This document shows positions 9 to 4,817 of a stretch of 41,610 nt of DNA, in pieces; the stretch's first letter is position 1, and each line of letters opens with the position of its first letter. The notes beneath the pieces were generated by a model that did not search any database, was not told where the DNA came from, and saw only the letters and a program-made list of their open reading frames with translations. The position numbers and the translations under genes were made by a program. The DNA is from a virus, in IMG/VR virus record IMGVR_UViG_3300006484_000022, positions 1-41,610 of that record. One strand, 5' to 3'.

Positions 9-401
9 ATGCTAAATAGATATGAAATGATGAATAACAAATATAAAGATCTTTTGGAAGAATATCCGTTTTTAACCGTGATTAATTATGCGGGCAATGA
101 GTATCTGGGTATTATGCAAAATATAGATACTCAAATTGCCAGTATGTATATGTACGAGCGCATACAATCAATTGAAGAAAAGAGATTATTTTTATCACTT
201 GGAGAAGAATGGTGGTGGGAAACTAACCGAAAACTTCCCATTAATATATCGCTGTTAAATCGTTGGCCATTTGGATATACTTGTCAAAGTTTTTCAGTAA
301 AGCAAATGGAGATATTAGCCGGGCCCGGAGTAAGTTTACAACACTGTATTACCAAACGTATCAAACGACGCAGTATTAATTTGATGAAAAAGAATTTTTA
401 A
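9..401 (+). CDS. Hypothetical protein, 130 aa
   Basis: I do not recognise this protein. It is a soluble-looking chain with no signal peptide or membrane segment. It has a Trp-rich stretch (EEWWWE, about residues 66-71) and a basic C-terminus (KRIKRRS). It is one of the few rightward genes, and its last 26 bases overlap the end of the converging mini-DnaE gene. The start is uncertain. A late-promoter-like GCTAAATA lies over the first codons (11-18), so the ATGs at 27 or 30 (residues 7 and 8) may be the real start. The window begins only 8 bases upstream, so any upstream ribosome site cannot be seen. Confidence 0.6.
   Translation: MLNRYEMMNNKYKDLLEEYPFLTVINYAGNEYLGIMQNIDTQIASMYMYERIQSIEEKRLFLSLGEEWWWETNRKLPINISLLNRWPFGYTCQSFSVKQMEILAGPGVSLQHCITKRIKRRSINLMKKNF
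11..18 (+). promoter_or_regulatory. Candidate late promoter (GCTAAATA)
   Basis: GCTAAATAGATAT closely resembles the GCTAAATACGATAT found upstream of gp14 on the same strand. By T4 late-promoter spacing the transcript would start near position 24, 3 to 6 bases before the in-frame ATGs at 27 and 30. The call is weak because the site lies at the window edge. Confidence 0.35.
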
Positions 402-963
402 CTAATTGATTTAGTTGCACTACAATAGCAACTGCATAGCTGACCGCGTGTGCTTTCTTAAAGAAATATTCATCACCCTCTGGTCGCACCCATACTTCCC
501 TATTAACTGTATCCCAATCTTTGCCCAGTAAATATCTTTTTGCTGGACGAATAACTGCGAGTACTGCTGCCAATTGTTCAACACTGCGCGGACGCATGCG
601 CTTTACAATGTCATAATGGCTGTGAATATGGAATAATTTTTCAACAATTTCGCCATGTTCTAGTAATTCCCACATGGGTTCTATTTCTAGCAACTCGTCT
701 AGTTCAGCGGGGGTTTTAATACTTTCATAGATATTTACATTGAGGATGTCAATCTTAAAGAAGCCAAGTTGATCTGATGTAGAATAGTCAACTGTAGATA
801 ATCCAGTAAACGGATCAATAGGTACTTCATGAAAATACACTCCAGTATTGTGGCGTTTTTTATGGCCTTTATTGTTTATCATCATAGCAGGAGTATGTTT
901 AATAAGACGCAACAGTTTTTGCCGATCTGCTACGTCAATATCAATATCTGTGTTTACTATCAT
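376..963 (-). CDS. Miniature DnaE-like (C-family) DNA polymerase core, 195 aa
   Basis: The protein resembles the catalytic palm of bacterial DNA polymerase III alpha (DnaE), compressed into 195 residues. TDIDIDVADR at residues 6-14 matches the DnaE PDFDVDF motif, giving aspartates D8 and D10. GVYFHEVPIDP to FFKIDIL (41-74) matches the GLVKFDFLGL region, giving the third aspartate D72. HIHSHYDIVKRMRP with AVIRP (112-140) matches the FQLESRGM and ALFRPG region. FFKKAHAVSYA (about 167-177) matches GFNKSHSAAYA. There is no PHP, OB or tau-binding domain, and normal DnaE exceeds 1,000 residues. It is the last gene of the uvsW-gp62 operon, 2 bases after the zinc-finger gene. Homology is read by eye from motifs. 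Whether it polymerises or is a regulatory relic cannot be told from sequence. Confidence 0.7.
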   Translation of the reverse strand: MIVNTDIDIDVADRQKLLRLIKHTPAMMINNKGHKKRHNTGVYFHEVPIDPFTGLSTVDYSTSDQLGFFKIDILNVNIYESIKTPAELDELLEIEPMWELLEHGEIVEKLFHIHSHYDIVKRMRPRSVEQLAAVLAVIRPAKRYLLGKDWDTVNREVWVRPEGDEYFFKKAHAVSYAVAIVVQLNQLVKNSFSSN

Positions 964-965
964 AG

Positions 966-1640
966 TTACAGCGTTGCCTTATCAAAAATGTTACGTACCC
1001 ATTCCGAATCAGTTTTGTTACGAAATAGTCTTACTTGCCAGTATTTCGGATCTGCATAATCCATTATCATGGTGGCCTGTTCTCCGTTTAATTTATCCAG
1101 CATATGCTGTGCATCTTTTGTAGAATATAAAACCCAAGGACTGACACGTCCGGCGCATATATCAAAAATGACCATATTTAATGCCCCAGTTTTAAAATAG
1201 TCTGCCCAGTGCCTGTTTGGATCTTTTTCTGCCCACGATTGCATGTGTAATATGCTGCGCTCAACTGCGCGATCAACACTTTCTGTCTTTAAACGTTCTT
1301 TGATCCATGTTGTAAAGTTTCTATCGCTAGTCCATTTATCTAGTTTAACACCGTTCTGTAATAGCCAAGTAGTGTATCCTGGCACGTCATCAATTTTTAC
1401 ATCAATGCAATATTGCCCAAACTTTACAAATGCACTGTAGTAGCTGCTACTGGCAAAGTCATCATAGCTTTTATCTTTTTTGCTGTTAGTGCCAATACGG
1501 TAGAAAAGCTGATATGCACGGAATCCCAACTGCGCATCTTTATTGTCACGTTGCATATATCTGCGCTTGGGCTCACACATATGAACCACAAGAGTGCTTT
1601 CTTTTTTAAAATCTTTTTTACAGTATTCGCATTTAAACAT
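966..1640 (-). CDS. Zinc-finger hypothetical protein, 224 aa
   Basis: The N-terminus carries a C2HC-type finger: C4, C7, H20 and C22 in the pattern C-x2-C-x12-H-x-C. It is followed by a Trp- and Tyr-rich domain of about 190 residues that I do not recognise. The start overlaps the previous gene by 8 bases, and the mini-DnaE gene begins 2 bases after its stop, so all are probably translated from one message. The finger suggests nucleic-acid or protein binding. The operon (uvsW, gp62, DnaE-like) suggests a replication or recombination accessory role, which is inference only. Confidence 0.7.
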   Translation of the reverse strand: MFKCEYCKKDFKKESTLVVHMCEPKRRYMQRDNKDAQLGFRAYQLFYRIGTNSKKDKSYDDFASSSYYSAFVKFGQYCIDVKIDDVPGYTTWLLQNGVKLDKWTSDRNFTTWIKERLKTESVDRAVERSILHMQSWAEKDPNRHWADYFKTGALNMVIFDICAGRVSPWVLYSTKDAQHMLDKLNGEQATMIMDYADPKYWQVRLFRNKTDSEWVRNIFDKATL

Positions 1641-2418
1641 TGCTATAGTCCAAGAATCGGTTATACTCTACCAGCATTGCATCTGAATATTCTATAGATA
1701 GCTGATTACATACATTATGCAGGTTTAAGTCCAAGATGTCAAATTCTTTATAGTTATTTCTTTTGGTAAATGCATGTGATTCTTCTAATATATGCGTAAC
1801 GTATGTGTTTATGATATTGTCACGCTCAGAAATATCAGGAAAGGAAATGCCATCATGATGAAACATAAACTGTAATTGCCAGAATTCTAAATTGTTGTCT
1901 TTAGCCATAGCTATTGCTTTCTCGCCATATGTATCATATACCCATCTTCTGTATTCTAAATTATCTTGATGATGATCATGAATATGCATGTTCAATGATT
2001 CGACGACGTCTTCTGCAGACAATGGCCTGGCGTGATAGCAATCAAAAAATATTTCTACAGTTTTCCTGCTGGATTTAATTGAAATTAATTCTACTGATTC
2101 ATTAGTCCACGCTGCTGATTTATTCCATGCCCCGTAGCTTAATCCAAATATAGATCTGGACTTAAAATCGTTGACAAAATTATCAATCCATACGAAATTA
2201 TTGTCTACTTGTTCTATATGTTCAATATAGGCATGGCTCCAATGAGCAGGTTCTAAACTATGATTGTCCCAGGGATCAGTATGCGGGGCAATTGTGTTAT
2301 TATCAGTTGTCCACCCAAACCTGAAAAAATTACTATCATAACTATTACTTTGTTGAAGTATCCATCCCAACACACTTGTAAACATGCCTTCTTCATTGTA
2401 TATATAGGCATGTTTCAT
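1633..2418 (-). CDS. Hypothetical protein, 261 aa
   Basis: The product is not recognised. It is rich in aromatic residues and His (for example WDNHSLEPAHWSHAY and MHIHDHHQ) and has no signal peptide or membrane segment. The ATG overlaps the gp62 stop (ATGA), and its 3' end overlaps the zinc-finger gene by 8 bases, which points to translational coupling. The DNA looks more AT-rich than the flanking uvsW and gp62 genes. The His clusters could bind metal, but no known motif is clear. Confidence 0.65.
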   Translation of the reverse strand: MKHAYIYNEEGMFTSVLGWILQQSNSYDSNFFRFGWTTDNNTIAPHTDPWDNHSLEPAHWSHAYIEHIEQVDNNFVWIDNFVNDFKSRSIFGLSYGAWNKSAAWTNESVELISIKSSRKTVEIFFDCYHARPLSAEDVVESLNMHIHDHHQDNLEYRRWVYDTYGEKAIAMAKDNNLEFWQLQFMFHHDGISFPDISERDNIINTYVTHILEESHAFTKRNNYKEFDILDLNLHNVCNQLSIEYSDAMLVEYNRFLDYSNV

Positions 2419-2873
2419 TTCAGTAATTTTTTAATGTCTTTTTTCTTCATACCAGTTTCTTCCAGCAGATCTATAATTTCTTCTTCAGTGTACTGCAACA
2501 TAAGAATTTCAATCTCTTCATCGTTCATACCCGGATACATATCAGCAAAGAACTTGAAAATTTTATTTTCAGTACCGCGTTTTCCCGGAGCAATCCACTG
2601 ATGGAACTGTGGCTTGCCGAGACCAAGTGCTTGCATTAGTTGAAATTGCAATTGTGGATGATGGCGCAATGTATTGAAATGTGTATTAACTAATGCATTG
2701 GTCATTTCTAGATAGTGTTCTTCAAAGTCTTTGATACCACTTTTAACACTGCTAACATAACGCATAAGAACCCATGGGCTAAGTTTCTTGCGCTCTTCTT
2801 CGCTCAGCGAATCCCACCAAGTCCTATTCTTGGTGTCGATTGCTGACATTTCTTCTTTAATAGTTATTCCCAT
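2415..2873 (-). CDS. 62: Sliding-clamp loader small subunit (gp62-like)
   Basis: This matches the short form of T4 gp62, the non-ATPase subunit that with gp44 loads the gp45 clamp on primer-template DNA. The pattern WWDSLSEEERKKLSPWVLMRY (from about residue 19), then the YLEMTNALVNTHF helix, HHPQLQFQLMQALG, and HQWIAPGKR is the order seen in gp62 of marine T4-like phages. It has 152 residues against 187 in T4. The C-terminus is a charged helical tail (EEEIIDLLEE, MKKKDIKKLLK). It starts 1 base after the preceding stop and overlaps the next gene by ATGA. gp44 and gp45 are not in this window. The assignment rests on motif recall, not alignment. Confidence 0.75.
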   Translation of the reverse strand: MGITIKEEMSAIDTKNRTWWDSLSEEERKKLSPWVLMRYVSSVKSGIKDFEEHYLEMTNALVNTHFNTLRHHPQLQFQLMQALGLGKPQFHQWIAPGKRGTENKIFKFFADMYPGMNDEEIEILMLQYTEEEIIDLLEETGMKKKDIKKLLK

Positions 2874-2874
2874 A

Positions 2875-3375
2875 TTACCAGATATCGTTTATGTCTAGTA
2901 CTTCTGGAATTTTGTGAGCATCTTTAACAATCATAATACAAGGAGATCCTGGCTCTTCACTAAGCGGAACACACAGCAAGTGTCCAAATTTTAACTTGGG
3001 TGCATGCCATTTAATATCAGTATAAATGTTTGAAATAGTTATGTCAAGATATTGTGGACTGAATCCGCTAATGGGATTCATTGCAAATGCTTTAAATCCG
3101 CGATCGTTCAAACTCATCAGACTTACTACTTCAGGATCACCTACTTCGGCATCACAAATAACAATGCTCCAATCTAATGGTACCTTGACAGTATATCCCC
3201 CTACACGCAAAACAGCGGCTGGGCTGTAAAAGCTTTCTAGAAAAATGAGCGGGATGAAAAAATAATCCACATTCTTTGGATTAGTATAATCCAATATCCC
3301 GTACCGCAAATCATCAACGGTTTCAGGGATGTCGTCTAAATCGTATGTTGTATTTTCAACTGTTAGAATTCTCAT
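2875..3375 (-). CDS. Hypothetical protein between uvsW and gp62, 166 aa
   Basis: The family is not recognised. The protein is mixed alpha/beta with hydrophobic strands (YFFIPLIFLESF, WSIVICDAE, HLLCVPLSEE) but no true membrane helix. Its ATG overlaps the uvsW stop (ATGA), and gp62 starts 1 base after its own stop, so it sits inside the replication operon and should be expressed with it. A role linked to clamp loading or replication is inference from position only. Confidence 0.7.
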   Translation of the reverse strand: MRILTVENTTYDLDDIPETVDDLRYGILDYTNPKNVDYFFIPLIFLESFYSPAAVLRVGGYTVKVPLDWSIVICDAEVGDPEVVSLMSLNDRGFKAFAMNPISGFSPQYLDITISNIYTDIKWHAPKLKFGHLLCVPLSEEPGSPCIMIVKDAHKIPEVLDINDIW

Positions 3376-4817
3376 TTATAATTTACTTTCTCTATAGTAT
3401 ATGGGTAGTTCGCCTCGGCGTAAAACTTTTTACGCTCTGTTAAATGCTTCTTGCTATACTTGGCAGTGCTAGCCAAGTCCCAGATTTCTACGTGTTCTTT
3501 ATCTGCGGCTTTTCGTATACCACGTCCGATACTCTGGATAACTCTTACAAACGATTTACCAGGCTCAAGTAGCACCATATTGAAGATACGAGGAATGTTA
3601 ATACCCACGGCAGCCACACCATAGGTTGCAATAGTAATACTATTGTCACTTTCATTAATTGCATCATATGCTGTTTTCCTATCTTTAGTTATGCCGTGTA
3701 CAAACGTAGAGCCTGGGATATTTGCAGCTAGCATCTCGCCTGCTGCAATGCGGTCTACTAGAATAAGAGTATTACCTGACTCAGCAATTTTTATTATAAG
3801 ATTACTAATGTATTCCATACGCTGTGGATTTGTAGTCAAATATGCTAGTTCGCTTTGGTAATTACTGTATTCTGCGGTTTCTTTAAGTTGCATAATGTTA
3901 ACGTGGCAATTACTCAAAACGCCCATTTCCTGTAGCGTACTTGCTGACAGTTGATTAACAACTTCTCCTAGACTTGCTTGCAATGAAATAAATTCGTGCG
4001 GTGCCTTGGGAATAGTACCTGTCAACCCCCAACGCAATGGTATATGCGCAAAGTCCTTGGTAAGCATCTCTTTAAGTACGTCTGCTTTTGCTTGGTGTAC
4101 TTCGTCAACAATAACACACACTACATCTTCAATGAACTCCTGTAGTCCAAAGTCAGCATCGCCTTCGCGGAATCGTTTCTTAATACTATTTAAACTTTGC
4201 CATGTGCAAATAGTATGCATCTTGCCGATTTCTTTTTTGTCGCCATAATAAACGCCTACGTCAAGTCCCAAGTTGATGTAATCAGCGCATGTTTGCTTGA
4301 CTAGATCTTTATTTGGTACAATAACAATACTGCGGCCATATTGTTCTACCGCGTAGCTGAGTGCAGCAGTAACGAGTGTTTTACCTGCACCAGTTGCAAT
4401 TTCTTGTAAACATTGTGGTGTTTCCAAAAATTTATTTACTACTTCAATTTGATAGTCACGTAACGTAACTGGTTGCCCTTCAACTGGATGACCAGCAGGC
4501 CATTCTTTGTGCTGAAAGGTAGTTTCAGTTACGGCTTCAAATTGAAGGTTATGATGGGTACGACGATCTTCGATTGTCGGAGTATACCCAGCACTTATGA
4601 TAATAGGAAGTATTCGATCCAATAAGTTAACGTATGTTACGCCGCCAACTGTAAAGAAACTCATAGTACCATCCCACCGTCCCAGTTTATATGCTGGGGT
4701 ATGATAGGCATGCGGGAGGAAAAACTTTAGTTCCTTTTCACACTTTTTACGTGTGTCAAGATCAAGTCCTTCAATCTTCGCATTAACTTCGTCTTTAATA
4801 ATAATATTACACTGCAT
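3372..4817 (-). CDS. uvsW: UvsW-like superfamily 2 helicase
   Basis: UvsW is an SF2 helicase that unwinds branched DNA and R-loops and switches T4 from origin-dependent to recombination-dependent replication. The N-terminal domain has the diagnostic YKLGRWDG segment (43-50). It is followed by the Q-like LRDYQIEVV (119-127), Walker A ATGAGKT (141-147), DEVH box (238-241), motif III GLTGT (264-268) and a motif VI-like QSIGRGIRK near residue 430. Its 481 residues are close to the T4 length. It heads an operon of six overlapping genes. An in-frame stop precedes the ATG by a few codons, and no Shine-Dalgarno is visible. The sigma-70-like promoter sits 6 bases upstream, so the message may be leaderless. 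Confidence 0.93.
   Translation of the reverse strand: MQCNIIIKDEVNAKIEGLDLDTRKKCEKELKFFLPHAYHTPAYKLGRWDGTMSFFTVGGVTYVNLLDRILPIIISAGYTPTIEDRRTHHNLQFEAVTETTFQHKEWPAGHPVEGQPVTLRDYQIEVVNKFLETPQCLQEIATGAGKTLVTAALSYAVEQYGRSIVIVPNKDLVKQTCADYINLGLDVGVYYGDKKEIGKMHTICTWQSLNSIKKRFREGDADFGLQEFIEDVVCVIVDEVHQAKADVLKEMLTKDFAHIPLRWGLTGTIPKAPHEFISLQASLGEVVNQLSASTLQEMGVLSNCHVNIMQLKETAEYSNYQSELAYLTTNPQRMEYISNLIIKIAESGNTLILVDRIAAGEMLAANIPGSTFVHGITKDRKTAYDAINESDNSITIATYGVAAVGINIPRIFNMVLLEPGKSFVRVIQSIGRGIRKAADKEHVEIWDLASTAKYSKKHLTERKKFYAEANYPYTIEKVNYK

What the first reader, a model, noticed from the sequence alone, without database searches (positions are those of the whole stretch)
376..963. A 195-residue stand-alone DnaE-like polymerase core in a T4-type replication operon
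Seen: D8/D10 in TDIDIDV, D72 in FFKIDIL, HIHSHYDIVKRMRP with VIRP, and FFKKAHAVSYA occur in the same order as the palm and adjacent motifs of bacterial DnaE, with the spacing between the second and third acid cut from about 150 to about 60 residues. Known: DnaE uses three palm aspartates for catalysis, and T4-like phages replicate with the unrelated B-family gp43. Inference: this is either a minimal C-family polymerase or a decoy/regulator, co-expressed with gp62 and uvsW. All three catalytic acids seem retained, which argues against a simple relic.
Basis: partly seen in the sequence, partly recalled or inferred. Interest (0 to 1): 0.78.

Follow-up and report, generated by a model that had tools for sequence, protein, structure and literature searches.

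The report
Half of a two-gene phage polymerase
This small phage gene makes the metal-binding half of a stripped-down bacterial-type DNA polymerase; in its large-phage relatives the other half is made by a distant gene, so the two proteins probably join into one working active site, an arrangement predicted in 2021 but, as far as found here, never tested at the bench.

Summary
ORF 376-963(-) (195 aa) has a DnaE-type catalytic core: its predicted model (pLDDT 92.8) matches only bacterial PolIII alpha/PolC strongly in the PDB (VIA Z up to 10.0; first unrelated row 3.6), and the acids are invariant in 79 relatives. The catalytic pair is D6/D8 (E. coli D401/D403), not D8/D10; D72 = D555 is right. 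And it is not stand-alone: it starts at the PDxDxD motif and lacks the preceding palm segment with the GRGS nucleotide-binding motif. That segment is a separate ~170-aa gene elsewhere in the genome. Superposed on E. coli alpha, the halves cover 278-393 and 398-781, abutting. Both occur together in 12 of 12 large records searched, each with a B-family polymerase and no PHP domain. Iyer et al. 2021 (PMC7824862) already described this split minimal PolIII alpha, so the window gene is a new member of a known kind. Best explanation: a trans-assembled minimal C-family polymerase acting beside gp43. The window is a 41.6-kb fragment without the partner, and no activity measurement was found.

The parts
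376..963 (-). C-terminal half of a split minimal PolIII alpha (PHROG 11778), 195 aa
934..951 (-). TDIDID (residues 5-10): D6 = E. coli D401, D8 = D403 (catalytic acids), D10 = D405; all three invariant in 79 sequences
841..852 (-). HNTG (residues 38-41), counterpart of DnaE HAGG (from H511); H38 and G41 invariant
748..756 (-). KID (residues 70-72): K70 = K553, D72 = D555 (third catalytic acid); K70 and D72 invariant
544..633 (-). FHIHSHYDIVKRMRP...VIRP (residues 111-140), counterpart of DnaE 609-640; R139, P140 invariant
433..465 (-). FFKKAHAVSYA (residues 167-177); H172 = E. coli H760, the proposed sugar steric gate; F168, K169, H172, Y176 invariant
966..1640 (-). upstream neighbour, 224 aa, N-terminal C2H2-like zinc finger (below Pfam cut-off), PHROG 11058, unknown function
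2415..2873 (-).
3372..4817 (-). UvsW-like helicase, same operon
9..401 (+). convergent 130-aa gene overlapping the end of the polymerase gene; its L002 orthologue is PHROG 11637; a convergent small gene is also seen there in most reference phages inspected

Best explanation
The gene encodes the metal-binding C-terminal half (palm strands with the three catalytic aspartates plus a reduced fingers part) of a minimal C-family (PolIII alpha-type) DNA polymerase split into two separately encoded proteins. The N-terminal half (~170 aa, PHROG 11127, carrying the GRGS motif that in DnaE binds the incoming nucleotide's phosphates) comes from a distant gene. The two halves meet at the break between E. 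coli residues 393 and 398, completing the Pol-beta-type palm and forming one nucleotidyltransferase active site of about 365 residues in all, without PHP, without most of the fingers segment E. coli ~642-750, and without the C-terminal clamp- and tau-binding regions. It works next to the phage's B-family gp43 in a T4-type replisome, most likely in an auxiliary role (repair, gap filling or synthesis of one strand). Shown: fold, residue conservation, complementarity of the halves, co-occurrence, presence of PolB in relatives. Inferred: physical association, catalysis, cellular role; also that this window's virus has the partner, which would lie outside the 41.6-kb fragment.
For: PHROG 11778 'DNA polymerase' E=6e-66. 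Catalytic and nucleotide-site residues invariant in 79 C-halves; G, R, G, S of GxGRGS invariant in 72 N-halves. Both AF2 models confident, 92.8 and 90.7. VIA superposition, N-half / C-half: E. coli 278-393 / 398-781 (2hnh); PolC 825-965 / 968-1299 (3f2b); M. tuberculosis 305-413 / 416-811 (5lew); Taq 294-455 / 458-841 (3e0d). All 72 N-halves match PF07733, in the seven genomes first searched only its N-terminal segment. N-half found in 12 of 13 records holding the C-half; the exception is a 109-kb unverified record. PolB in all 13; PHP in 0 of 12. dN/dS 0.05-0.10 for close pairs. Same proposal in PMC7824862.
Against: No biochemistry was found. The two halves could not be co-folded here. The fingers segment of E. 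coli 642-750, which includes LRRAMG at 708-713, is reduced to about 20 residues, so templated synthesis is not guaranteed. The N-half is not in the window, nor in the 221-kb contig of a close relative (L161), nor in eight of nine IMG/VR contigs chosen for holding the C-half (all may be fragments). Seven of 15 contigs chosen for the N-half had no C-half.
Confidence: 0.7

Rival explanations
1. Decoy or regulator: the half-palm is not an enzyme but binds host PolIII subunits or the phage clamp loader and redirects them; the retained acids reflect fold stability.
For: The protein lacks the GS motif and PHP; residue conservation alone does not prove catalysis.
Against: The metal-binding acids, the K beside D72 and the steric-gate histidine counterpart are invariant in 79 sequences, GRGS is invariant in the partner family, the two halves abut without overlap and co-occur. 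A decoy would not need a second gene supplying exactly the missing palm segment. The C-terminal clamp- and tau-binding regions of DnaE, which a decoy could best use, are absent.
Confidence: 0.1
2. The pair is an active nucleotidyltransferase but not a templated DNA polymerase (for example end addition to, or modification of, a nucleic acid or protein), having lost most of the fingers.
For: Large loss between E. coli 642 and 750; Pol-beta-type palms serve many non-polymerase nucleotidyltransferases (general knowledge).
Against: [quoted passage not shown] coli model (PMC8485763), are kept; the gene sits just upstream of primase/gp41 genes in the reference phages inspected.
Confidence: 0.15
3. 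Decaying remnant of an acquired bacterial dnaE.
For: Short length compared with the 1160 aa of E. coli DnaE.
Against: dN/dS about 0.05-0.10 in close pairs, invariant active-site residues and intact frames across many relatives, conserved neighbourhood in phages of very different hosts.
Confidence: 0.02
4. A truly stand-alone 195-aa polymerase.
For: Confident compact model; catalytic acids retained.
Against: The palm segment with the phosphate-binding GRGS motif is missing, and a separate conserved gene supplies it.
Confidence: 0.03

Closest known systems
Split minimal PolIII alpha of 'group 2.2' jumbo phages (Iyer et al. 2021, PMC7824862); C-half PHROG 11778, N-half PHROG 11127
   Same: Same C-half family, same T4-type operon, same residues; relatives carry the distant N-half and a B-family polymerase.
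   Different: The window sequence is a new member (nearest isolate relative 52% identical, Sinorhizobium phage Phosso). Its partner has not been seen because the window is a fragment. The family also occurs in 141-kb phages (Slicko01, Slickus01), below the usual jumbo size.
Bacterial DnaE (PolIII alpha; E. coli dnaE, 1160 aa)
   Same: Palm/fingers fold over E. coli 398-781 and counterparts of D401/D403/D555, K553 and H760.
   Different: No PHP, no GS segment in the same chain, fingers cut by roughly 90 residues, no C-terminal clamp-, OB- or tau-binding parts.
PolC (Geobacillus kaustophilus 3f2b)
   Same: Superposes over residues 968-1299, Z 9.7, rmsd 3.4, 190 aligned.
   Different: No exonuclease, PHP or OB parts; 14% identity.
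567-aa single-chain, PHP-less C-family polymerase beside the C-half gene in the contig of L208 (also L193)
   Same: Short phage-encoded C-family palm in the same neighbourhood.
   Different: Unsplit, with its own GS motif and acids; present in addition to the C-half; matches PHROG 405.

Membership tests
Split minimal PolIII alpha of jumbo phages (Iyer et al. 2021) | C-terminal unit with the Mg2+- and template-binding subdomains of PolIII alpha | tested here: met
   PHROG 11778 E=6e-66; strong fold matches only to PolIII alpha/PolC; invariant acids
Split minimal PolIII alpha of jumbo phages (Iyer et al. 2021) | Separate, distant gene for the N-terminal NTP-binding unit in the same genome | tested here: inconclusive
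   Found in all 12 large related records; the window is a 41.6-kb fragment and holds no N-half
Split minimal PolIII alpha of jumbo phages (Iyer et al. 2021) | Accompanies a B-family polymerase | tested here: inconclusive
   Found in all 13 related phage records/contig searched; the window virus itself is incomplete and was not scanned separately for PolB
C-family DNA polymerase (DnaE/PolC) | Three catalytic aspartates in a Pol-beta-type palm | tested here: met
   D6 and D8 align to D401 and D403 by HMM, D72 to D555 by motif; VIA Z 6.5-10.0 to PolIII alpha/PolC
C-family DNA polymerase (DnaE/PolC) | GS (GRGS) nucleotide-binding motif in the same chain | tested here: not met
   Absent from this protein; present in the partner family
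C-family DNA polymerase (DnaE/PolC) | N-terminal PHP domain | tested here: not met
   Absent from the protein; PF02811 in 0 of 12 related genomes while the control rings in 14 of 14
C-family DNA polymerase (DnaE/PolC) | DNA polymerase activity | not testable with these tools
   needs biochemistry

The most novel reading that the evidence does not exclude
The two small proteins assemble in trans into an unusually small C-family DNA polymerase (about 365 residues in all), with one active site built from two chains made by unlinked genes, and it does a distinct job beside gp43 in a widespread group of large phages.
Probability: 0.5. Interest if true: 0.65.

Novelty: new member of a known kind. 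Interest (0 to 1): 0.38.

Why it matters
If the pair is active, it shows how little of the bacterial replicase is needed for catalysis and gives a C-family active site formed by two unlinked genes, in phages that already carry a B-family replicase. Why a phage keeps two unrelated polymerase types is open, and this pair makes the question directly testable. The prediction itself is already published; the window adds a member, and this study adds confident models of both halves, a precise break point, residue mapping and genome counts.

Tried and rejected
Sequence-only comparison with solved structures is weak (phmmer E=1.2; profile best E=0.0055 with estrogen-receptor noise from E about 1; hhalign against E. 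coli DnaE alone probability 8.6%) and was not used as proof. Pfam on the window protein: no hit over cut-off; only 14 of 79 members hit the finger domain at E<=0.01. Search for an unsplit form (both profiles in one ORF) in all loci held: none; the only loci with both profiles, L193 and L208, carry an extra single-chain polymerase instead of a true N-half. A-family polymerase: none over cut-off in 8 genomes. Search for the window population's own N-half with the L072 N-half: five loci, none from the samples of the window's close relatives. dN/dS for pairs with saturated dS was ignored. The N-half's first ~70 residues were not covered by the fold matches and were not studied further.

Full report
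Observation. ORF 376-963 on the minus strand (195 aa) exists as described. It belongs to PHROG 11778, annotated 'DNA polymerase' (E=6e-66). tblastn finds it in 63 phage records, all under 60% identity and all covering at least 80% of the query, including Klebsiella phage RaK2, Escherichia phage 121Q, Pseudomonas phages PA5oct and Paride, Agrobacterium phage Atu_ph07, Sinorhizobium phage Phosso and Salicola phage SCTP-2.

Residues. The motifs lie in DnaE order. An HMM of the family aligns to E. coli DnaE at 399-421, 595-641 and 753-767, in order, each stretch weak alone. Numbering from the E. coli gene: MPDFDVDF starts at 399, so window D6 = D401, D8 = D403 and D10 = D405; K70 = K553, D72 = D555; H38 = H511; R139/P140 = R639/P640; H172 = H760. 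D401, D403 and D555 are the palm active-site residues and H760 the proposed steric gate in E. coli PolIII alpha (PMC8485763). In an alignment of 79 sequences D6, D8, D10, H38, K70, D72, R139, P140, F168, K169, H172 and Y176 are all invariant; the same holds in a 29-sequence alignment that includes six reference phages. Compared with E. coli, most of 406-505 and of 642-750 is missing.

Fold. AlphaFold2 on the 79-sequence alignment gives pLDDT 92.8, pTM 0.78. Foldseek against the PDB returns PolIII alpha/PolC chains as ranks 1-15, best E 2.3e-4. VIA: Taq PolIII alpha Z 10.0, rmsd 3.5, 193 aligned; PolC Z 9.7, rmsd 3.4, 190; E. coli Z 8.6, rmsd 4.3, 187; the first unrelated row has Z 3.6.

What is missing, and where it is. 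The protein begins at the PDxDxD motif, so it lacks the preceding palm segment with the GRGS motif. A search of eight related records with PF07733 found, in seven (the eighth is a 154-kb contig), one further place matching only profile positions about 16-98, in ORFs of about 170-180 codons where the frame was free-standing. These proteins end like ...WGVGRGSSTSSYVLYLIGIHRVNSIKYDLDIGEFLK, that is at E. coli residue 392-393, just before where the window protein starts. The family is PHROG 11127; all 72 aligned members match PF07733; the G, R, G and S of GxGRGS are invariant. The model of one member (L080, pLDDT 90.7) matches PolIII alpha/PolC only: M. tuberculosis Z 12.4, rmsd 2.2, 97 aligned; E. 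coli 278-393. Placed on the same solved chains the two halves abut: 278-393/398-781 (E. coli), 305-413/416-811 (M. tuberculosis), 294-455/458-841 (Taq), 825-965/968-1299 (PolC).

Genomes. With an N-half profile, 12 of 13 C-half-bearing records (11 phage records and a 318-kb IMG/VR contig) have exactly one N-half; the exception is an unverified 109-kb record, PP728206. All 13 have a B-family polymerase, and none of the 12 has a PHP domain. In the wider phage collection, tblastn with a 121Q N-half lists nearly the same set of phages as the C-half search. The N-half gene lies within a few kb of an annotated clamp-loader gene in 121Q, RaK2, Paride and Atu_ph07, and of an AAA-ATPase gene in Phosso. 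The C-half gene lies upstream of primase/gp41 genes in the reference phages inspected, with uvsW a few genes before it in 121Q and RaK2 and a convergent small gene behind it in most, and the same order holds in L002, the 91%-identical relative of the window. In the 141-kb phage Slicko01 both halves lie within about 12 kb. Among IMG/VR contigs the pair is often seen only in part, which fits fragments but is not proof.

Selection. Close pairs (window, L002, L003; 89-94% identical) give dN/dS of 0.05-0.10, so the gene is under purifying selection.

Prior art. [quoted passage not shown] Earlier genome papers noticed only the N-half, as a 'truncated' alpha subunit of 172 aa (PMC5259590) or as gp316 of Atu_ph07 (PMC6102473). 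No later paper with experiments was found in the library, which is open-access only.

Judgement. The gene is the C-half of that split enzyme. What is inferred, not shown: that the halves bind, that they polymerise, what for, and that the window's virus has the partner. The decoy idea is disfavoured because both sides of the active site are kept invariant in two separate genes and fit end to end. The loss of much of the fingers leaves open a non-templated nucleotidyltransferase.

Noticed in passing
L208:11127-12560 (+), whole ORF in L237:97-1797 (-); also L193 from 12010: A 567-aa single-chain C-family polymerase without PHP domain, with its own TRGS and PDVDIDF motifs, about 4.5 kb downstream of the C-half gene after gp41-like and endonuclease III-like genes. 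Found in 2 of the C-half loci held; a possible second, unsplit mini-polymerase.
   Followed up: partly
Atu_ph07 212336-213688, Slicko01/Slickus01 about 3.5-5.1 kb, G001 about 211.4-214.3 kb: The B-family polymerase appears to be divided over two reading frames in several of these phages.
   Followed up: no
PHROG 13169 (463 aa) and PHROG 7513 (461 aa) profiles: These phage families contain the N-half region near their C-terminal end, which hints that other phage C-family polymerases may be split near the same palm point.
   Followed up: no
L045:2724-3545, L046:2805-3623: RaK2 and 121Q carry an exonuclease-subunit-like gene annotated as DNA polymerase exonuclease/DNA polymerase III next to uvsW; none was recognised in the window's operon.
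   Followed up: no
window 1633-2418 (-): 261-aa operon gene with no Pfam or PHROG match, between the PHROG 11758 and PHROG 11058 genes.
   Followed up: no
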